Below, piece by piece: positions 1,649-26,666 of a DNA stretch of 50,864 nucleotides; the first letter of the stretch is position 1; each line of letters begins with the position of its first letter. Both the position numbers and the translations under genes were made by a program. The stretch spans positions 1 through 50,864 of the forward strand of contig JAFUMO010000014.1 of NCBI GenBank assembly GCA_017482565.1. The letters are read 5' to 3'. Below the pieces are notes generated by a model, which saw only the letters and a program-made list of their open reading frames with translations, made no database searches and was not told where the DNA came from. Source of the stretch: Bacteroidales bacterium. GTDB lineage: Bacteria > Bacteroidota > Bacteroidia > Bacteroidales > UBA932.

Positions 1649-3916
1649 ATGGAACCGCAAATTGTGCATAAAAGGCGTTATGCCTCTGTGATTCTTCCTG
1701 TTAAGTATAGCGGGGAGGTTTCCTACATTTTACCTCAATTTATGGAGGCCAGAGTGGGGCATAGGGTGAGGGTAGACCTGGCAGGAAAGGTTTATCAGGG
1801 GGCAATCCGCCGTATCCTGCAGGAAGATGAGGTTCCTGCCTTTACTCCCGACGGAAAGCCAATCCAGTATAAGCCGATTTTGGCAATAGAGGAGCTTCCC
1901 GCAATCCTTCCTTCTGAGTTTGCCTTGTGGGATAAGGTTGCGGAGTATTATCTGTGTACCCCGGGAGAGGTGTTCAAGGCTGCCTATCCTGCACTTGCTG
2001 TAAGGCAGGAGGGGGTGAAGCCGAGGAAGACGGTGGAGCATTTCCTTGAGGGGCTTGCCTCAAAAGATACTATATACGGGGGAAGAGAGGAGCCTCTGCT
2101 TTCGGACGGGGCACCTCATTCATCGGAAGGTAAGACGCATCTGTCGGGATCGTCACCTGAGTCATCAGGAGTGGCACCCCGGTTGTCGGGAGTGCAGCAG
2201 GGGGTGTTGGAGCAGATCAGGAGGAGTTTCATGGAGGCGCCCGGGAAGCCTGTGCTGTTGAGGGGTGTTACGGGGAGCGGCAAGACTGAGATTTATATCA
2301 CTTTGGCGCTGGAGCAGCTCCGGCGGGGGAGGAGTGTCCTTTATATGGTTCCGGAGATTGCTATCAGCAAGCAGCTGCAGAGCCGTCTGAAGAAGGTTTT
2401 TGGGGAGAGGCTGCTCACATTCCATTCCAAGCAGACAGCCGCCGAGAAGGCGAGGATCCACAAGATATTGCAGTACCAGGCCGGAAGGGATGTGAGCTCC
2501 GCAACAGCCCGGGCCGGGCAGCAGACCGGCAGTCCCGTAAAGCCTGCGCAGGAAAGTACAGGTACTGCTCACGCCACAGTTAACCCGGCCACCGTAATCC
2601 TGGGGACCCGCTCTTCATTGTTCCTCCCTTTCAGCAATCTGGGGCTGGTGATAGTGGATGAGGAGCATGATTCCAGCTACAAGCAGACAGAGCCGGCGCC
2701 GCGCTATCAGGCCAAGGATACAGCAATTATGCTGGCGCAGCTGCATGGGACCAATATCCTGTTGGGCTCGGCCACCCCTTCGTTTGAGAGTGAGTACAAC
2801 TGCCTGAGCGGCAAGTTTGCCCTTGTGGAGCTCAAGGAGAAATATCACGGAGCCGTTCCCCCAAAGGTGGAGATTGTGGATACAATTTATGCGTACAAGA
2901 CCCGCCAGATGACCGGCAGTTTCAGCCAGAAGCTGATCAATGAGATGAGGAAGACCATCCGGGAGGGGTTCCAGGTGCTGGTTTTCCGCAACCGCCGTTC
3001 CTATTCCCCAATTGTGGAGTGCCAGGAGTGCGGTGCAATTCCAAAGTGCCCCCACTGCAATGTGTATCTGAGCTACCATAAATATAACAATACCCTCCGC
3101 TGCCATTATTGCGATTATATAGCCCATTTCACCGGGGTGTGCAACAGTTGCGGTACAGCTTCCTTCAAGTACAGGGGGGCAGGTACAGAGAAGCTGGAAG
3201 AGGAGCTTGCGGCACTTTTCCCTGAGGCTTCAATTGCCCGTTATGATGCCGATATTGCCAGGAGCAAGAGAACTGAGGAGCAGGTGATAAGGGATTTTGC
3301 CCAGGGGAACATTGATATACTTGTGGGAACCCAGATGATAAGCAAAGGTTTTGATTTTGAGCGGCTGAAGCTGGTTGCTATCATACAGGCGGACACCATT
3401 CTGGGCGTGCAGGATTTCCGTGGGGATGAGAAGTCCCTCCAGCTTATGAGCCAGCTGATGGGGCGCACGGGCCGCCGAGGGGTGCAGGGAAAGCTCATCA
3501 TCCAGACCTCCCAAAAGGAACACCCGGTGCTCACCAGGCTTGAGGAGCATAATATTCCCGACAGCAATTCCCTTCCCCCTCTTACAGCACAGCTGCTCAG
3601 GGAGCGTCAGGAGTACAATTTTGCCCCTTTCGTGAGGATGGTGAAGATTATTGTCAGGCACAGGGATGCCGGGAAGCTGGATGAACTGTGCGGGGAAATC
3701 TCAAGAAAGCTGTCGGGAAGAAAAGAGCTGGAATACAAGGAACTTACAGGCCCTTTTGCACCTGTGATAGATAAGGTGAGGGGGGAGTTTGTAAAGTGCT
3801 TCTACATAAAGTTCGCCCGCAACAGCCGCCTTGTGCGCAATAAGGCAATCCTGCAGGAGTGCATCAGGGATATAAAGGGGCATCAGGCCGTCATTCTGGA
3901 TGTGGACCCGCTGTAA
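1649..3916 (+). CDS. priA: Primosomal protein N' (PriA helicase)
   Basis: PriA is the 3'-to-5' DNA helicase that reloads the replisome at stalled or collapsed forks. Walker A (GVTGSGKTE) lies near residue 204 and the DEEH motif near residue 336. Eight cysteines (458, 461, 467, 470, 485, 488, 498, 501) form the two zinc sites of the family, and the GRTGRRG motif VI follows. The start gives the usual N-terminal DNA-binding domain. Two departures from the family are visible. The region between the N-terminal domain and the helicase (about residues 132-190) is short, Ser/Gly/Pro-rich and does not look like the usual winged helix. A roughly 30-residue low-complexity insertion (about 285-315) precedes VILGTRSS. 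It converges with the lipid-kinase gene, 18 bases away. Confidence 0.95.
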   Translation: MEPQIVHKRRYASVILPVKYSGEVSYILPQFMEARVGHRVRVDLAGKVYQGAIRRILQEDEVPAFTPDGKPIQYKPILAIEELPAILPSEFALWDKVAEYYLCTPGEVFKAAYPALAVRQEGVKPRKTVEHFLEGLASKDTIYGGREEPLLSDGAPHSSEGKTHLSGSSPESSGVAPRLSGVQQGVLEQIRRSFMEAPGKPVLLRGVTGSGKTEIYITLALEQLRRGRSVLYMVPEIAISKQLQSRLKKVFGERLLTFHSKQTAAEKARIHKILQYQAGRDVSSATARAGQQTGSPVKPAQESTGTAHATVNPATVILGTRSSLFLPFSNLGLVIVDEEHDSSYKQTEPAPRYQAKDTAIMLAQLHGTNILLGSATPSFESEYNCLSGKFALVELKEKYHGAVPPKVEIVDTIYAYKTRQMTGSFSQKLINEMRKTIREGFQVLVFRNRRSYSPIVECQECGAIPKCPHCNVYLSYHKYNNTLRCHYCDYIAHFTGVCNSCGTASFKYRGAGTEKLEEELAALFPEASIARYDADIARSKRTEEQVIRDFAQGNIDILVGTQMISKGFDFERLKLVAIIQADTILGVQDFRGDEKSLQLMSQLMGRTGRRGVQGKLIIQTSQKEHPVLTRLEEHNIPDSNSLPPLTAQLLRERQEYNFAPFVRMVKIIVRHRDAGKLDELCGEISRKLSGRKELEYKELTGPFAPVIDKVRGEFVKCFYIKFARNSRLVRNKAILQECIRDIKGHQAVILDVDPL

Positions 3917-4882: not shown

Positions 4883-4905
4883 ATTGTTGAAAACTTTATA
4901 GTACG

Positions 4906-4913
4906 CAAATGTA
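4906..4913 (-). promoter_or_regulatory. -7 element of the lipid-kinase gene
   Basis: The reverse complement reads TACATTTG, a full TAnnTTTG match, 23 bases upstream of the start. It is divergent from the parA element at 4944-4951. Confidence 0.55.
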
Positions 4914-4943
4914 ATAAAAACTGAACTCTTTAAAAAGATTTCT

Positions 4944-4951
4944 TATTTTTG
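4944..4951 (+). promoter_or_regulatory. -7 element of parA
   Basis: TATTTTTG matches TAnnTTTG and lies 18 bases before the ATG at 4970. Because it overlaps the possible TTG start at 4949, it argues for the ATG at 4970 as the true parA start. Confidence 0.6.
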
Positions 4952-4969
4952 CGTGTTAGAGATTTTTTT

Positions 4970-20403: not shown

Positions 20404-20811
20404 TTATGCAATTTTATTTCCTACAAGCTGTATATCAACGGACTTGATGTTAAAGTTGTCAAATTTTCTGGTTGATATGTATTCCATGACCATCCTTACA
20501 AGCTCAGGATCGTGAAAATCCTCATATGAGTTATCGGCTGTGTCATAAAAATGGGCATGTTCATAGACGTTTACATCAAAATACATCTTGTTGTTTGAAC
20601 TGAACCGTCTTACCAGAAGCCCTGAGTTTACAAATGACTCCAATACATTATATATTGTTGCAATGGTCATGGAAGGGAACGAGACTGCAACTTCCTCTGC
20701 AACCCTATCCACGCATGCGTGCCCAAGCTTCCTCATTGCAGCGTAAACTGCAATCCTCTGGGGCGTGGTCTTCAGTCCGGCTTCCTTAATTTTCTCTTTT
20801 AATGCAAGCAT
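20404..20811 (-). CDS. Fur/PerR-family transcriptional repressor
   Basis: A 135-residue Fur-superfamily regulator. TPQRIAVYAAM and the MTIATIYNVLESFVNSGLL recognition-helix region define the winged helix, and EHAHFYD is the regulatory metal site. The CxxC pairs that hold structural zinc in typical Fur and PerR are absent; the only cysteine is in GHACVDR, and the stretch after HAHF reads YDTADNSYEDFHDPE. Position before rubrerythrin suggests peroxide sensing. The frame runs back to 20934 without a stop, but the ATG at 20811 aligns with family N-termini. It diverges from gadB. Confidence 0.88.
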   Translation of the reverse strand: MLALKEKIKEAGLKTTPQRIAVYAAMRKLGHACVDRVAEEVAVSFPSMTIATIYNVLESFVNSGLLVRRFSSNNKMYFDVNVYEHAHFYDTADNSYEDFHDPELVRMVMEYISTRKFDNFNIKSVDIQLVGNKIA

Positions 20812-20884
20812 ATATTCTCTGTTTTTGTTTGTGCTGCAAAGTAAATTAAAATGATTATTATATGCAAGTAATTTTAAGAAAATA

Positions 20885-20915
20885 TTACAACTTAAATCAA
20901 AAAAAGTTGTTGTAA
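20885..20915. promoter_or_regulatory. Inverted repeat between the perR-like gene and gadB
   Basis: TTACAACTT (20885-20893) is mirrored by AAGTTGTTGTAA (20904-20915), with an extra GTT in the right arm. It lies 41-71 bases upstream of the gadB ATG. A second AT-rich near-palindrome resembling a PerR box lies around 20852-20866. Neither has been shown to bind a regulator. Confidence 0.3.
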
Positions 20916-20956
20916 ATGAACTATCGGGAATCAAAAAATTTAATAACCAGAAGATT

Positions 20957-22360
20957 ATGAAAGAAGAAAAATTTTTGGACGCCCCTGTATTCGCACAGAA
21001 GAGCGTTTTGGAGCAGGCTCCTGCAGATGTAATTCCACAAAATCCTACAGACCCTGAAGTTGCCTACCAGATGGTTAAGGAGGAGACCTATCCCCAGACA
21101 AACCCAATGCTCAACCTGGCTACATTTGTTACCACCTATATGGATGATTATGCCACAAGGCTCATGAATGAGGCAATAAACATCAACTATATAGATGAAA
21201 CGGAATATCCACGTGTGGCGGTGATAAACGGCAAGTGCATAAACATCCTTGCCAACCTCTGGAACACCCCGGAGCAGCGTAAATGGAAGACAGGAGCAGT
21301 GGGCATAGGGTCAAGTGAAGCCTGTATGCTGGGAGGTATTGCAGCGTGGCTGAGGTGGAAGAAGAGGAGGATATCCCAGGGCAAGCCCTATGACAAGCCC
21401 AACTTTGTGATAAGTACAGGAATGCAGGTAGTATGGGAAAAATTCTCTCAGCTGTGGCAGGTGGAGATGAGGCAGGTCCCCATTTCAAGGGAGCACATTA
21501 CCCTGGATCCGGCTCTTGCACTCCAGTATTGTGATGAAAACACAATCTGCGTGGTACCTATCCAGGGGGTAACATGGACAGGTCTCAATGATGATGTGGA
21601 GGCACTTGATGCGGCCCTTGAAGAGTACAATGCCCGCACAGGATATGATATTCCAATACATGTGGATGCAGCCTCGGGCGGATTCATCCTCCCGTTCCTC
21701 AAACCGGAGAAAAAATGGGACTTCAGGCTCAAATGGGTTCTCTCAATAAGCACCTCAGGGCACAAATATGGCCTTGTATACCCAGGATTGGGATGGGTAA
21801 TATGGAAGGATAAGCAGTATCTTCCAGATGAAATGAACTTCTCCGTAAATTATCTTGGAGCGGAAATCTCCCAGGTTGGGCTCAACTTCTCCCGTCCTGG
21901 AGCCCAGATTTTGGGGCAATACTACAATTATATAAGATTGGGATTTGAAGGGTACAAGGCAATCCAGCAGAACTGTATGGATATAGCAAAATACATCTGG
22001 GAAGAGATAGCCAAGTTCCCTCAGTTCCACAACTATGCGGATGAGGTGGTGAACCCTCTGTTCATCTGGCATCTGGATGAGGAATATGACCGGAGTGCAA
22101 AATGGACCCTCTATGACCTGCAGGACAAACTCAAGCAATATGGCTGGATGGTTCCTGCATACACCCTCCCTGCCACCCTTGAGGATATAGTAGTTATGAG
22201 GGTAGTTATAAAGCAGGGCTTCACAAGGGATATGGCGGACATGATGCTCAACGATATGCACACAGCCGTGGCAGAACTTGACAGGCTGGAATATCCTACC
22301 GCATCCCGCATTGCGTACGAAAAGCAGGAGAAGCAGAAGGGCAAGGTATTTACCCATTAA
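20957..22360 (+). CDS. gadB: Glutamate decarboxylase
   Basis: A 467-residue PLP enzyme that converts glutamate to GABA and consumes a proton, the basis of glutamate-dependent acid resistance. The PLP aspartate lies in IHVDAASGGF and the PLP-binding lysine is about Lys270 in TSGHKYGLVYPG, near the position of the E. coli residue. The N-terminal YMDDYATRLMNEAININYIDETEYP segment (shortened: YMDDYATRLMNEA) is typical of the family, and length matches E. coli GadB (466). gadC follows after 20 bases, forming a two-gene operon. Confidence 0.95.
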   Translation: MKEEKFLDAPVFAQKSVLEQAPADVIPQNPTDPEVAYQMVKEETYPQTNPMLNLATFVTTYMDDYATRLMNEAININYIDETEYPRVAVINGKCINILANLWNTPEQRKWKTGAVGIGSSEACMLGGIAAWLRWKKRRISQGKPYDKPNFVISTGMQVVWEKFSQLWQVEMRQVPISREHITLDPALALQYCDENTICVVPIQGVTWTGLNDDVEALDAALEEYNARTGYDIPIHVDAASGGFILPFLKPEKKWDFRLKWVLSISTSGHKYGLVYPGLGWVIWKDKQYLPDEMNFSVNYLGAEISQVGLNFSRPGAQILGQYYNYIRLGFEGYKAIQQNCMDIAKYIWEEIAKFPQFHNYADEVVNPLFIWHLDEEYDRSAKWTLYDLQDKLKQYGWMVPAYTLPATLEDIVVMRVVIKQGFTRDMADMMLNDMHTAVAELDRLEYPTASRIAYEKQEKQKGKVFTH

Positions 22361-22380
22361 CGGTTTAAAACTTTACAGTT

Positions 22381-23838
22381 ATGGCTGATAACAAGAAACA
22401 GGTTGCCAAGCTTGGGGTTGTTACGCTGGCAATCATGAATGTCACCGCTGTGGTGAGCCTCAGGGGCTTGCCGGCTGAGGCGGAGTATGGATTGAGTTCT
22501 GCATTCTATTATCTGTTTGCCGCAATTGTTTTTCTTATACCTACATCGCTGGTGGCTGCGGAGCTGGCAGCAATGTTCAAGGACAAGCAGGGCGGAGTGT
22601 TCAGGTGGGTAGGTGAGGCCTTTGGGAAGAAGTGGGGTTTCCTGGCCATCTGGCTGCAGTGGATAGAGAGTACCATCTGGTATCCTACAGTGCTAACCTT
22701 CGGTGCCGTGGCAATTGCATTCATCGGGATGGGGCAGGCGCATGATATGGCCCTGGCTTCAAACAAGATATATTCGCTCGTGGTGGTGCTTGCAATCTAC
22801 TGGCTGGCTACCTTAATCTCCCTCAAGGGAATGGGATGGGTATCCAAGGTGGCAAAGATAGGAGGCCTGGTGGGAACGATAATACCAGCGGCACTTCTGG
22901 TGCTGTTGGGGGTTGTGTATCTCGCTACCGGCGGGGTTTCCCAGATGGATTTCCATGGGAGCTTCTTCCCAGATCTTACCAATTTCAACAATCTGGTGCT
23001 GGCATCGGGAATATTCCTCTTCTATGCAGGTATGGAGATGGGCGGTATCCATGTAACGGATATGGAGAACCCTGCCAAGAACTACCCTAAGGCCATCTTC
23101 ATGGGTGCGTTCATCACCGTGCTGATTTTTGTGCTGGGTACTTTTGCCCTTGGTGTGATTATCCCGCAGAAGGATATCAACCTTACCCAGAGCCTGCTGA
23201 TTGGTTTTGACAAATATTTTGCCTACCTGAAGGCAAGCTGGCTTTCCCCTGTGATAGCCGTGGCCCTGGCGTTTGGAGTGCTGGCAAGTGTGCTTACTTG
23301 GGTGTCCGGTCCTTCAAAAGGTATATTTGCCGTTGGAAAGGCTGGTTATCTCCCTCCTTTTTTCCAGAAGGCCAACGGTGCCGGGGTACAGAGGAATATC
23401 CTGCTGGTACAGGGCGGCATTGTAACCATACTGGGACTCCTGTTCGTGGTGATGCCTTCAGTACAGAGTTTCTACCAGATATTGAGCCAGCTTACCGTGG
23501 TGCTCTACCTTATAATGTACCTTATAATGTTTGCTGCGGCCATAAAGCTCAGGTATAACATGAAGGATTATGAGCGTCCGTACAGGATTGGCAGGAAGGG
23601 TAACGGCATGATGTGGATTGTGAGCGGGCTGGGTTTCTGCGGATCATTGCTTGCATTTGTCCTGAGCTTCATCCCTCCTGGACAGATAGCAACGGGAAGC
23701 AATACCGTGTGGTATTCTGTCCTTGCCATAGGGTGTGTGGTTGTGGTTGGTGCACCACTGCTCATCTATGCGAACAGGAAGGATAGCTGGGTTTCAAAAG
23801 ATGCGGAGTTTGAGCCTTTCCATTGGGAGGTGAAGTAA
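22381..23838 (+). CDS. gadC: Glutamate/GABA antiporter
   Basis: A 485-residue APC-superfamily antiporter with twelve predicted helices. The N-terminal VTLAIMNVTAVVSLRGLPAE (LRGLP motif) and QGGVFRWVGEAFG are characteristic of GadC-like proteins. It exchanges external glutamate for the GABA made by GadB. The C-terminal tail after the last helix is short (about 20 residues), so the C-plug that closes E. coli GadC at neutral pH may be reduced. A terminator starts eight bases past the stop. Confidence 0.9.
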   Translation: MADNKKQVAKLGVVTLAIMNVTAVVSLRGLPAEAEYGLSSAFYYLFAAIVFLIPTSLVAAELAAMFKDKQGGVFRWVGEAFGKKWGFLAIWLQWIESTIWYPTVLTFGAVAIAFIGMGQAHDMALASNKIYSLVVVLAIYWLATLISLKGMGWVSKVAKIGGLVGTIIPAALLVLLGVVYLATGGVSQMDFHGSFFPDLTNFNNLVLASGIFLFYAGMEMGGIHVTDMENPAKNYPKAIFMGAFITVLIFVLGTFALGVIIPQKDINLTQSLLIGFDKYFAYLKASWLSPVIAVALAFGVLASVLTWVSGPSKGIFAVGKAGYLPPFFQKANGAGVQRNILLVQGGIVTILGLLFVVMPSVQSFYQILSQLTVVLYLIMYLIMFAAAIKLRYNMKDYERPYRIGRKGNGMMWIVSGLGFCGSLLAFVLSFIPPGQIATGSNTVWYSVLAIGCVVVVGAPLLIYANRKDSWVSKDAEFEPFHWEVK

Positions 23839-23840
23839 TG

Positions 23841-23877
23841 AAAAAGACGGCATCCATCAGGGTGCCGTCCTTCTTTT
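23841..23877. terminator. Bidirectional terminator between gadC and the NigD-like gene
   Basis: GACGGCATCC (23846-23855) pairs with GGGTGCCGTC (23860-23869) around ATCA. A-rich sequence precedes and T-rich sequence follows, so it can serve both converging genes. Confidence 0.8.
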
Positions 23878-23906: not shown

Positions 23907-24608
23907 CTATTTCAATGGCTTCACTACGTAGGATTTGAGCTCCTCCTGTCCCAGGTTATGGTCCAGGCCGCGGAATTTCAGCTCATAACCGGAGCATCCC
24001 AGCATATCCATTGCATACTCCCCAATATAGAAACTTGCCATGCTGGTGATGGTGTATCCGGCACCATCCTCAAGCGGTGGGTAGCAGCTGAATCCCAATT
24101 CAAGCGGATAATACTCGTCCCACTGGGGCTCACCGTCAATCCGGTTGTCAACAAGGCCTACTGTGAGGTGCTGTTTTGAGTTGTACTGGTCTATGTTCAC
24201 CTTGAACTCAACATTGATGAAGCCGCCTCCAATGTATGCGTTGATAATCTCAATTCCGTTCTTGAGCGTATCCGCCCCGGCAGTTTGTACAGTCTGGATC
24301 TTCTTGGTAAGTACCTCGGTTATACCGTAAACATCAGCATTGTAGTCAAAGCCGGGAACAGTCTCGTTAAGTTCCTTGAAGTATACAAGGGCTCTCTGGA
24401 TGTCATTTGAAGGCTCGTACTGTACCCTCATTATGCTTGGATACAGTTTCTTGCCATCATCCAGCATGCCATAGAAACCTGCGGCATCCAGTGATTTCTT
24501 TACTGTAACAAGCGACACCTGGTCAGGCTGGTCAGATTCTGTTGTACATGACTGCAAGAAAGGAACTGCCATAAGGGCCAATAAAATGATTGTTGCAAAT
24601 TTTCTCAT
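23907..24608 (-). CDS. NigD-like lipoprotein
   Basis: A 233-residue lipoprotein (signal MRKFATIILLALMAVPFLQSC, Cys after LQS). The GGFINVEFKVN...KQHLTVGLVDN segment and the LDDGKKLYPS-like start are the pattern I associate with NigD family proteins of Bacteroidales; the molecular function is unknown. The start was taken at the ATG 24608 rather than the upstream 24644, because only the former gives a proper signal peptide. It diverges from the sigma-factor operon and shares with it a mirror-image promoter region. Confidence 0.7.
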   Translation of the reverse strand: MRKFATIILLALMAVPFLQSCTTESDQPDQVSLVTVKKSLDAAGFYGMLDDGKKLYPSIMRVQYEPSNDIQRALVYFKELNETVPGFDYNADVYGITEVLTKKIQTVQTAGADTLKNGIEIINAYIGGGFINVEFKVNIDQYNSKQHLTVGLVDNRIDGEPQWDEYYPLELGFSCYPPLEDGAGYTITSMASFYIGEYAMDMLGCSGYELKFRGLDHNLGQEELKSYVVKPLK

Positions 24609-24649
24609 TTCAGTGATTTTTATAAATATTTTTTTGTCGTTCACTACAT

Positions 24650-24713
24650 AAAACGTGCAAAAATATAAAATACTGCATAAACGGCTGCAGTATTTTTTAC
24701 ATTTGTACGTTTA
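24650..24713. promoter_or_regulatory. Mirror-image divergent promoters of the NigD-like gene and the sigma/anti-sigma operon
   Basis: Two 28-base arms, 24650-24677 and 24686-24713, are inverted copies matching at 23 of 28 positions around an 8-base spacer. The inner 11 bases of each (AAAATACTGCA / TGCAGTATTTT) are identical. Each arm contains a -7 element facing outward: TATTTTTG on the minus strand (24665-24658) and TACATTTG on the plus strand (24698-24705). ACGTTT follows both. No TTG -33 element is present. Either a dimeric regulator binds the palindrome or both promoters use the same alternative sigma factor. Confidence 0.7.
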
Positions 24714-24733
24714 TAGAGTGAGAAGATTTGAAA

Positions 24734-25303
24734 ATGGAGGAGCGGGAACTCTCAATATCATGTGCGCAGAATGATCCCGGTGCCCGGAAGGAACTATACG
24801 ACAAATACTCCGGACACCTGTTTGGGGTGTGTCTCCGCTATGCCTCAAACCGGGAGGAGGCACTTGATATCCTGCACGACTCCTTTATAAAGATCTACTC
24901 CAATATAGGCAGGTTTACCTGGCGGGGCCCAGGATCCCTCAAGGGCTGGCTCACCCGCCTTACCATAAATCTCGCCATAGAGAAGATCAGGGAAACATCA
25001 AGGTTCAGGACAGTGGAGATTCCTCCGGATGCCCCCTGCACCTATGGCCCTCTTCCCGACGAAAGGAGCGTTGGTGAGGTACCTCTTGAAGTGCTGGTAA
25101 AGTTTGTGGAGGAGCTTCCTCCCGGATACAGGGCCGTATTCAATCTATATGTATTTGAGGAGCTTTCCCACAAGGAGATAGCCCGGATGCTCGGAATCAA
25201 TGAAAAATCCTCCTCCTCACAACTGCTCAGGGCAAAAGCGGCAATGGCAAAGAAAATAAATGACTACAAAAACAGATTGGAAAATGGAAATCAACAGAGA
25301 TGA
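24734..25303 (+). CDS. ECF-type RNA polymerase sigma factor
   Basis: A 189-residue sigma-70 family factor of the extracytoplasmic type. Region 2 covers about residues 10-80 (SGHLFGVCLRYASNREEALDILHDSFIKIY, shortened: NREEALDILHDSFIKIY), region 4 about 115-170 (LPPGYRAVFNLYVFEELSHKEIARMLG in outline). The ATG at 24734 is used; a TTG at 24728 would add two residues. Its 3' end overlaps the next gene by 20 bases, so the two are translationally coupled, as expected for a sigma factor and its anti-sigma partner. Confidence 0.92.
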   Translation: MEERELSISCAQNDPGARKELYDKYSGHLFGVCLRYASNREEALDILHDSFIKIYSNIGRFTWRGPGSLKGWLTRLTINLAIEKIRETSRFRTVEIPPDAPCTYGPLPDERSVGEVPLEVLVKFVEELPPGYRAVFNLYVFEELSHKEIARMLGINEKSSSSQLLRAKAAMAKKINDYKNRLENGNQQR

Positions 25304-26666
25304 AAAGTGGCTTGTGAAGCTGAAGGACTCGCTGGGAAACTGGCAGGAGCCTGCTCCGGCTGATTTCTGGAGCAATCTGCAAAAGGATATGCCTCAGGCA
25401 GGAGCCGCCGGGGAGACTGGCGGGAGGCGTCCGGCAAGGTATCTTTATTGGACAGCCGTGGCGGCAGCGGTACTCCTGGCGGCATTCCTTTTTGTGCAGC
25501 ATCAGGAAGAAGCCCTGCCCGTGACTCCGGGCACAAAAATAGCCCAGAATGAGCCCGTACCTGAGGCGGAGCAGCCTTTGGGAACAAAAACGGCCCAGAA
25601 TGAGCCTGTACCTGTGGCGGAGCAGCATTTGGACACAAAAACAACTCAGAATGAGCCCGTACCTGTGGCGGAGCAGCCTTCAGGCACGAAAACTGTCCAG
25701 AATGAGCCCGTACCTGTGGCGGAGCAGATTTTGGGAACAAAAACAACCCAGAATGAGCCAGTACCTGTGGCGGAGCAGCCTTCGGGAACAAAAACAGCCC
25801 AGAATGAGCCAGGCACTGAGCCGCAGCTGTTGAAGGAGACAATCAGGGAGGCTCTTTATCTGGCAGAGGAAAAGCCGGAGCGCAAAAAGTGGATTGCCTT
25901 TTCTGCCGGGAACGGGGCATTTTCTGCCCCATCAGGTTTCTTGAAAGGTGAATCATCGGTGTATCCTGTTCAGGATGATATGGTTATGGGGAATATGGCA
26001 GCCAGCGGGGATGAAGACCATGAAGAGTGGGGCGGTGGCTCCGGTACGCCTGAATTGGATCTGCAGCAGGGACAGATATTGGGGATTACAAACCTTGGCA
26101 TTGAGGAGAACAGGAAAGTGGTGATGGTGGGCGGATCAAACTTCTATTCCTTCAGGAGCAAGGAGGTGTACAGGTCCTACAAGTACAGCCACAGGCAGCC
26201 TGTGAGGCTGGGTGTCTCATTTGCAATGGAGGTTACCGGCAGACTCTTCCTTGAGAGCGGCCTTACCTACGAATATCTTGGCTCCACCATGAAGGGGAAC
26301 GGTGAAACCCTGCATCAGAACCTGCATTATCTTGGAGTACCCCTGAAGGCAAATATCTACTTTTCAAAGGGTGACAGATTCTCCCTGTATGCAGGTGCAG
26401 GATTCCTTCTTGAAAGATGTGTGTACGGGACAATCGGAGGGGAGAGGATAAACCTCAGCCACTGGCAGAAGTCGCTCTCTGCAAGTATAGGTGCCCAAAT
26501 CTTTCTTGGGGGGCATGCGTACCTGTACCTTGAACCTGGTGCAAGCAGGTATCTTGGTATGGATGAAGAGGTTATATCCATGCAGAAGGGGTATATGATA
26601 AAGACTTTGCATTCAGAAGAACCATTTGGCATTACAATATCTGGCGGAGTTAGAATTTTGTTTTAA
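25284..26666 (+). CDS. Predicted dual-membrane anti-sigma factor with outer-membrane beta-barrel
   Basis: A 460-residue protein with four parts. Residues 1-50 are a cytoplasmic head with an EPAPADFWSNLQ motif, suited to binding the sigma factor. Residues 53-71 are one transmembrane helix with RR before it. Residues 83-180 are six tandem copies of a 17-residue GTKTxQNEPVPVAEQ unit. After a further linker, residues about 300-460 alternate in barrel fashion (RLFLESGLTYEYLG, DRFSLYAGAGFLL, HAYLYLEPGASRYLG) and end in GGVRILF, a barrel terminus. This layout is that of Dma proteins reported in Bacteroides thetaiotaomicron, anti-sigma factors that span both membranes. The start at 25284 was chosen over 25260 for a better head. 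Confidence 0.8.
   Translation: MEINRDEKWLVKLKDSLGNWQEPAPADFWSNLQKDMPQAGAAGETGGRRPARYLYWTAVAAAVLLAAFLFVQHQEEALPVTPGTKIAQNEPVPEAEQPLGTKTAQNEPVPVAEQHLDTKTTQNEPVPVAEQPSGTKTVQNEPVPVAEQILGTKTTQNEPVPVAEQPSGTKTAQNEPGTEPQLLKETIREALYLAEEKPERKKWIAFSAGNGAFSAPSGFLKGESSVYPVQDDMVMGNMAASGDEDHEEWGGGSGTPELDLQQGQILGITNLGIEENRKVVMVGGSNFYSFRSKEVYRSYKYSHRQPVRLGVSFAMEVTGRLFLESGLTYEYLGSTMKGNGETLHQNLHYLGVPLKANIYFSKGDRFSLYAGAGFLLERCVYGTIGGERINLSHWQKSLSASIGAQIFLGGHAYLYLEPGASRYLGMDEEVISMQKGYMIKTLHSEEPFGITISGGVRILF
25530..25820 (+). repeat. 51-bp in-frame tandem repeat (five full copies plus a partial sixth)
   Basis: Copies begin at 25530, 25581, 25632, 25683, 25734 and 25785 and encode GTKTxQNEPVPVAEQxx. Copies differ by a few bases each. 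The period is a multiple of three, so gain or loss of a unit keeps the frame and changes the length of the periplasmic linker by 17 residues. Confidence 0.92.

What the first reader, a model, noticed from the sequence alone, without database searches (positions are those of the whole stretch)
24650..24713. Mirror-image duplicated promoter joins a NigD-like gene to a sigma/anti-sigma operon
Seen: the intergenic region is a 28-8-28 inverted repeat, 23 of 28 arm positions matching, whose arms each contain an outward -7 element and whose inner 11 bases (AAAATACTGCA / TGCAGTATTTT) are perfect. The matching runs beyond the -7 boxes to ACGTTT near the predicted start points, so the two genes have near-identical promoters. 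Neither has the usual TTG -33 element. Inference: one regulator, most simply the ECF sigma factor itself, drives both sides, making the lipoprotein a direct target and the sigma factor self-activating. From memory and unverified here, a NigD-family lipoprotein was reported downstream of the Das1/Dma1 sigma/anti-sigma pair that controls vesicle formation in B. thetaiotaomicron, which would fit.
Basis: partly seen in the sequence, partly recalled or inferred. Interest (0 to 1): 0.75.

Follow-up and report, generated by a model that had tools for sequence, protein, structure and literature searches.

The report
Mirrored stress-sigma promoters flank NigD gene
Two back-to-back copies of a stress-response promoter probably let one sigma factor switch on both its own operon and a neighbouring surface lipoprotein gene; this is a conserved, partly known control module of gut Bacteroidales whose promoter signature can now be used to predict what it controls.

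Summary
The inverted repeat is real: arms match at 23 of 28 positions across 8 nt, and 0 of 2000 shuffles reach that. It is best read as a back-to-back pair of ECF-type promoters. Each arm has TGCAGTATTT as -35 and ACGTTTA/ACGTTTT as -10, firing outward into a NigD1/NigD2-family lipoprotein gene and an ECF sigma/Dma-like anti-sigma operon. In 57 divergent NigD|sigma loci, 52 score on both arms. The gap between arms varies from 8 to 48 nt. Of 26 named sigma loci without adjacent NigD, 11 have the sigma-side arm and only 1 has both. That argues for two promoters, not one operator. That the sigma factor drives both genes is well supported; published work on Phocaeicola vulgatus shows NigD production needs the homologous EcfO. 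In 80 Bacteroides-group genomes the motif occurs 114 times against 3 for the reversed control; 27 of 37 fetched sites precede sigma or NigD-like genes. The module is known. I found no report of the promoter signature, but two key papers were not available.

The parts
24650..24713 (.). Inverted repeat: two outward ECF-type promoters back to back, 8 nt between the -35 elements
24686..24695 (+). -35 element TGCAGTATTT of the sigma/Dma operon
   Evidence: sequence and coordinates; motif
24707..24715 (+). -10 element ACGTTTATA of the sigma/Dma operon; 15 nt between TGCAGTA and CGTTTA
   Evidence: motif
24668..24677 (-). -35 element TGCAGTATTT of the nigD gene
   Evidence: motif
24648..24656 (-). 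-10 element ACGTTTTAT of the nigD gene
   Evidence: motif
23907..24608 (-). NigD1/NigD2-family lipoprotein, 233 aa, lipobox LQSC
   Evidence: NF051862 110.1 bits (cutoff 60); PF12667 51.1 and PF17415 28.4 bits
24734..25303 (+). ECF sigma factor, 189 aa, Das/EcfO-like
   Evidence: PF04542, PF08281; TIGR02937; alignment A1
25284..26666 (+). Dma/Reo-like anti-sigma protein (460 aa; ORF start alternatively 25260): short N-terminal part, one TM helix near residues 53-71, repeat tether, probable C-terminal outer-membrane beta-barrel
25529..25810 (+). 51-bp tandem repeat (5.5 copies) coding the tether of the Dma-like protein

Best explanation
The repeat is two copies of the promoter recognised by the ECF sigma factor encoded on its right, placed back to back. 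Unstressed, the Dma/Reo-like anti-sigma protein, which has one transmembrane helix and probably ends in an outer-membrane beta-barrel, holds the sigma factor. Envelope stress releases it. The sigma factor with core RNA polymerase then binds TGCAGTATTT (-35) and ACGTTTA/ACGTTTT (-10), about 15 nt apart, on either arm, and transcribes rightward its own sigma/anti-sigma operon (self-amplification plus resetting) and leftward the NigD lipoprotein gene. Shown here by sequence comparison: the elements, their conservation on both sides, their place at the head of transcription units, and their enrichment before sigma and NigD genes. Shown by others in a homologous system: sigma-dependent NigD production and induction by antibacterial toxins. 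Inferred: that this particular sigma factor reads these two sites, the names -35 and -10, the exact start sites, and the stress signal.
For: (1) De novo motif search on 35 named divergent loci finds, for both sides, the same outward bipartite element: aTGCAGTATT-N-gCATTTA for sigma, TGCAgTATT-N-gCaTTTt for nigD. (2) The window was not in training; its arms score 24.3 and 24.9 bits with the NigD-side model and 17.8 and 21.0 with the sigma-side model. The maxima over 2768 null slices are 17.2 and 14.0. (3) Both arms score at least 14.5 bits in 52 of 57 divergent loci, and in 20 of the 22 not used for training; the two sets share no exact 40-mer, and 2 of 1954 null slices reach that score. (4) The arms follow gene layout. 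In 19 named codirectional nigD-sigma-dma loci, 0 have a scoring site just before sigma and 14 have a variant site before nigD, by a regular expression written after seeing the sequences. Of 26 named sigma loci without adjacent NigD, 11 have the forward arm and 1 has both. (5) Gaps between arms differ: 8, 18, 22, 25-27, 37, 42, 46-48 nt. (6) 114 matches against 3 reversed controls in 80 Bacteroides-group genomes, 53 of them with a match. Of 37 fetched sites, the next gene is sigma in 15 and matches my NigD model in 12, one of which, L263, Pfam files as DUF4840. (7) In P. vulgatus ATCC 8482, 4 of 6 NigD-family genes examined carry the site; published work on another strain reports three nigD genes in the EcfO regulon and NigD production dependent on EcfO (passages of PMC13114119). 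(8) The nearest relative found, L178 with 65% sigma identity, has the same 23-of-28, 8-nt repeat.
Against: No transcription start or binding data exist for this genome. Five of 57 divergent loci fall short on at least one arm; L041 has a diverged pair, TGCAGCAATA, on both sides. 15 of 26 sigma loci without NigD do not reach the score, and the models score only 2 of 19 codirectional nigD upstreams; several of these carry variant sites. L033 and L209 have both arms without an intact NigD found beside them. A canonical promoter overlaps the sigma-side arm in 6 of 56 arms, so a basal housekeeping contribution is possible and the window's TAnnTTTG may not be idle. The own genome holds a second sigma/Dma-like pair (L133), though with another promoter type. 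The models were trained on loci chosen by homology to this sigma factor, and the pattern was written after seeing Bacteroides sigma promoters, so its sigma hits are expected; the NigD hits are the informative part.
Confidence: 0.9

Rival explanations
1. The repeat is one palindromic operator for a dimeric repressor or activator that controls both genes.
For: Near-perfect symmetry in the window and in L178. A Fur-like regulator ORF (my reading) lies at 20404-20934, about 3.7 kb away, so a nearby regulator exists.
Against: Arms stand 8 to 48 nt apart in different relatives while keeping internal spacing; 10 of 26 named sigma genes without adjacent NigD have the sigma-side arm alone; unlinked nigD genes have a single arm.
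Confidence: 0.04
2. Two ordinary housekeeping (sigma-ABfr) promoters with -7 TAnnTTTG boxes, as the first reader read the arms, with regulation from elsewhere.
For: TAnnTTTG is present in both arms of the window and of L178; six Bacteroides-group sigma-side arms carry a full TTG-N20-TATCTTTG.
Against: TAnnTTTG at this register in only 10 of 56 sigma-side and 3 of 51 NigD-side arms, none with TTG on the NigD side, while 52 of 57 loci have the ECF elements on both sides. It remains possible as an extra basal promoter.
Confidence: 0.05
3. The 11-bp stem with T-rich flanks is a bidirectional terminator or an RNA hairpin.
For: A simple scan flags it as terminator-like on both strands.
Against: It lies between two divergent start codons with no gene reading into it, and relatives with 26-48 nt gaps keep the arms but not so compact a stem-loop.
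Confidence: 0.01

Closest known systems
EcfO-Reo with its three nigD genes, Phocaeicola vulgatus CL10 (PMC13114119, PMC9308784: passages seen)
   Same: ECF sigma plus an anti-sigma said to span all compartments; locus numbers 03760-03762 suggest a nigD beside them; NigD production depends on EcfO. The ATCC 8482 locus L213 has the divergent layout and mirrored sites.
   Different: Different organism; gap between arms 46 nt in L213 against 8 nt here; no promoter motif was found by the word searches made in these papers.
Das1-Dma1 and nigD1 of Bacteroides thetaiotaomicron (PMC13088901: abstract and passages; the 2024 PNAS paper is not held)
   Same: ECF sigma with a dual-membrane-spanning anti-sigma; loss of Dma1 raises nigD1 and vesicle formation.
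   Different: Role in vesicles not tested for the present NigD; B. thetaiotaomicron was not among the 80 named loci kept (of 578 candidates), so its own locus was not compared.
EcfO-Reo of Bacteroides fragilis (Ndamukong 2013, not held; known from citations)
   Same: Cited as an earlier described pair of this kind, linked to oxidative stress.
   Different: Promoter work in that paper, if any, could not be checked.
Non-canonical -30/-10 promoters of SigW-1 and SigH-1 in B. thetaiotaomicron (PMC12596196: passages)
   Same: Promoters proposed for other ECF sigma factors of the group.
   Different: Described with a TGTT motif near -10; the passages do not mention TGCAGTA or a Das1 motif.

Membership tests
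NigD1/NigD2 lipoprotein family (NF051862) | Score above curated cutoff | tested here: met
   110.1 bits against 60; PF12667 and PF17415 above cutoff
NigD1/NigD2 lipoprotein family (NF051862) | Lipoprotein signal with lipobox | tested here: met
   MRKFATIILLALMAVPFLQSC by my reading of the sequence; no signal-peptide predictor was run
Dma/Reo dual membrane-spanning anti-sigma family | Encoded directly after an ECF sigma gene | tested here: met
   pair seen in relatives
Dma/Reo dual membrane-spanning anti-sigma family | Single transmembrane helix after a short N-terminal domain | tested here: met
   top 19-residue hydropathy 2.11 at residues 53-71
Dma/Reo dual membrane-spanning anti-sigma family | Long disordered tether | tested here: inconclusive
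   51-bp repeats coding a low-complexity stretch; disorder itself not predicted
Dma/Reo dual membrane-spanning anti-sigma family | C-terminal outer-membrane beta-barrel | tested here: inconclusive
Dma/Reo dual membrane-spanning anti-sigma family | N-terminal part binds the sigma factor | not testable with these tools
   needs a binding assay
ECF21 sigma group | Assignment by ECF group model | not testable with these tools
   no ECF group library; general ECF match TIGR02937 82.5 bits against 42.9. PMC13088901 says ECF21 genes lie next to Dma genes
EcfO/Das regulon promoter | Same bipartite element before the sigma gene and nigD genes of a studied species | tested here: met
   P. vulgatus ATCC 8482 locus L213 and 4 of 6 NigD-family genes examined; strain differs from the published one

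The most novel reading that the evidence does not exclude
With only 8 nt between the two -35 elements, as here and in L178 but in no other of the 57 loci, the stretch where RNA polymerase normally contacts DNA upstream of each promoter is occupied by the other promoter. The two cannot easily be used at once. In this lineage the mirrored pair may act as a competitive divider between making more sigma/anti-sigma and making NigD, where relatives with 26-48 nt gaps fire both together.
Probability: 0.25. Interest if true: 0.55.

Novelty: new member of a known kind. Interest (0 to 1): 0.5.

Why it matters
NigD lipoproteins are reported among the most expressed genes of P. vulgatus in the monocolonised mouse gut (PMC13114119) and one is needed for extra vesicle formation in B. 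thetaiotaomicron (PMC13088901), yet their function is unknown. A promoter signature for the sigma factor behind them turns the question of its direct targets into a genome search: it separates NigD genes that carry the site from those that do not, adds other lipoproteins (one serpin-like) as candidates, and follows the system across the Bacteroidales.

Tried and rejected
A palindrome search for short-gap mirrored arms over 393 genomes of the order used arms too short to be informative and was not used. In the own genome, GCAGTATTTN{10,14}RTTTA gave 1 site against 1 control; the up-to-3-mismatch search gave 19 sites against 13 control; GCARTANTTN{9,13}CRTTTW gave 4 against 0, two of them the arms. 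Of the extra sites looked at, most lie in ORFs or have no clear gene downstream. Lipoprotein genes in L132 (95 nt downstream) and L134 (50 nt) are mild leads; none is claimed as a target. Helical phasing of the gaps was considered; 18, 22, 37 and 42 fit no single phase well and it was dropped. The hand-made consensus was replaced by models trained without the window. Early slices missed arms where the sigma ORF had been called from an upstream start; searches use longer slices. Hence the no-NigD class is 11 forward and 1 both of 26 (L209 has both), not 10 and 0 as first printed. In one search, 13 of the 35 matches listed were examined (those with plausible scores and one weak one, L328, which is the L259 gene); L324, L328 and L329 are under the family cutoff. 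One site in B. salyersiae (L318, 10.3 bits) resembles the others but was counted as a miss. Recalled, from no call: the sigma-ABfr -7/-33 consensus, the usual -10-to-start distance, polymerase footprint and lipobox rules; 'serpin-like' (L265) and 'Fur-like' are my reading of printed sequence.

Full report
Observation. The repeat lies at 24650-24713, with 23 of 28 arm positions matching and an 8-nt gap. No other place in the window scores as high for 28-nt arms and gaps of 0-20, and 0 of 2000 dinucleotide shuffles of the 126-nt intergenic region reach 23.

Genes. Leftward is a 233-aa lipoprotein of the NigD1/NigD2 family (NF051862, 110 bits, cutoff 60). Rightward is an ECF sigma factor of 189 aa, followed with overlap by a 460-aa protein with one transmembrane helix, a repeat tether and a probable outer-membrane barrel. 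That is the layout described for Dma/Reo anti-sigma proteins (passages of PMC13088901, and PMC9308784).

Relatives. In the family, sigma-Dma pairs recur with NigD either divergent or upstream in the same direction, and many have no NigD beside them. I collected 14 divergent loci there (window included) from the loci fetched, 8 of 29 loci newly fetched from across the order, and 35 of 80 named loci (19 codirectional, 26 without adjacent NigD). The named divergent ones include Bacteroides salyersiae, B. faecalis, Phocaeicola vulgatus ATCC 8482, P. massiliensis, Alistipes and Barnesiella. The 22 unnamed-plus-window loci and the 35 named ones share no exact 40-mer in these slices.

The shared element. 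A de novo two-block motif search on the 35 named loci, run separately on the sequences upstream of sigma and of nigD, found in each the reversed promoter of the opposite gene; read outward both are TGCAGTATT, a spacer, then gCATTTA or gCaTTTt. The window was not in training and scores 24.3 and 24.9 bits with the NigD-side model, 17.8 and 21.0 with the sigma-side model; maxima over 2768 null slices are 17.2 and 14.0. Over all 57 divergent loci, 52 reach 14.5 bits on both arms with the better of the two models; of the 22 outside training, 20 do. In longer null slices 2 of 1954 reach 14.5. The five that fall short are L041, L062, L194, L201 and L231.

Two promoters, not one operator. Among the 52, the gap between the TGCA ends is 8 in two loci, 18, 22, 37 and 42 in one each, 25-27 in 14 and 46-48 in 32. 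Where NigD is codirectional, no sigma gene has a scoring site within the 120 nt before it (0 of 19), while a variant, TGCAAG with GGATTTA or similar, precedes nigD in 14 of 19 by a regular expression written after looking; the trained models score only 2 of these 19. Where no NigD is adjacent, 11 of 26 have the forward arm and 1, L209, has both. One same-genus locus, L033, keeps both arms beside what looks like a decayed NigD remnant.

TAnnTTTG at the window's register is found in 10 of 56 sigma-side and 3 of 51 NigD-side arms. In six sigma-side arms a TTG stands 20 nt upstream, a complete canonical promoter overlapping the ECF one. In the window it may be a basal extra or chance, but it is not the conserved element.

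Regulon. In 80 genomes of the genus group of B. faecalis the pattern GCARTATTTN{9,12}GCATTTW has 114 matches against 3 for the reversed control, in 53 genomes. The pattern was written after seeing Bacteroides sigma promoters. Of 37 fetched sites (8, 29), the next gene is a sigma gene in 15, matches my NigD model in 12 (one of them, L263, is DUF4840 by Pfam), something else in 7, none in 3. Unlinked NigD-like genes in B. faecalis and B. salyersiae carry it about 43-51 nt before the start; these two score under the NF051862 cutoff. In six named genomes the strict pattern found nothing in P. vulgatus, P. massiliensis and the Alistipes genome, whose sites are variants. In P. vulgatus ATCC 8482, 4 of 6 NigD-family genes examined have a site of at least 14.5 bits and 2 have none; in B. 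faecalis 3 of 4, in B. salyersiae 2 of 3. A looser pattern in P. vulgatus gave 17 sites against 6 control, 12 of the 17 inside ORFs; the five intergenic ones include the sigma gene, a NigD-like gene and another lipoprotein gene. In the window's own genome only the two arms are convincing.

Link to experiments. In P. vulgatus CL10 the sigma/anti-sigma pair EcfO-Reo and three nigD genes are strongly induced in the mouse gut and by antibacterial toxins, and NigD production depends on EcfO (passages of PMC13114119 and PMC9308784). One of those nigD genes has the locus number next to ecfO, as in L213. In B. thetaiotaomicron, loss of Dma1 raises nigD1 and vesicle formation (PMC13088901). I could not match locus tags between strains. 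Paper searches for an ECF21 or EcfO promoter motif and word searches inside fetched papers showed none for this sigma factor; PMC12596196 describes a different -30/-10 motif for other ECF sigma factors. Ndamukong 2013 and Pardue 2024 are not held, so novelty of the motif is open.

Specificity. A second sigma/Dma-like pair in the own genome (L133) is preceded by TGCAACTTTT and GCATCTATA, the form seen in other branches. Promoter and sigma factor thus seem to vary together; this was not tested formally.

Verdict. A conserved, mostly known control module; this locus is a new member with unusually tight spacing, shared among the 57 loci only with L178. The sigma factor most likely drives both genes.

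Noticed in passing
L161, L162, L167, L168, L169, L171, L176 between the two arms (variant in L160): GTTAAAGA followed by A-rich sequence sits between the promoters in 7 of the 8 order-wide divergent loci, and GTTAAAGA is in the slice of 16 of 35 named divergent loci, but not in the window or the other 13 family loci. Possibly a second regulator site or upstream element.
   Followed up: partly
L033, about 2843-3031 minus strand: Same-genus relative keeps both promoter arms but next to them only a NigD-like remnant interrupted by stops.
   Followed up: partly
L179, L180, L191, L205, L207, L218, sigma-side arm: A canonical TTG-N20-TATCTTTG promoter overlaps the ECF promoter of the sigma gene, suggesting basal plus stress-driven expression.
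   Followed up: partly
window 4891-4966: Second-best inverted repeat of the window (20 of 28 arm positions, 20-nt gap) also holds outward TACATTTG and TATTTTTG, perhaps mirrored canonical promoters.
   Followed up: no
window 20957-23838: Glutamate decarboxylase and GadC-type antiporter genes converge on nigD, with a terminator-like stem at 23846-23869.
   Followed up: no
L133 1739-3407 (G000:C4): Second ECF sigma/Dma-like pair in the same genome with a different promoter type, TGCAACTTTT ... GCATCTATA.
   Followed up: partly
window 25529-25810: 51-bp tandem repeat, 5.5 copies, a multiple of three, in the Dma-like tether; its length may vary between strains.
   Followed up: no
L265, L263: In B. 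stercorirosoris the same promoter pattern lies 40 nt before a serpin-like lipoprotein gene (my reading) and 73 nt before a DUF4840 lipoprotein gene.
   Followed up: partly
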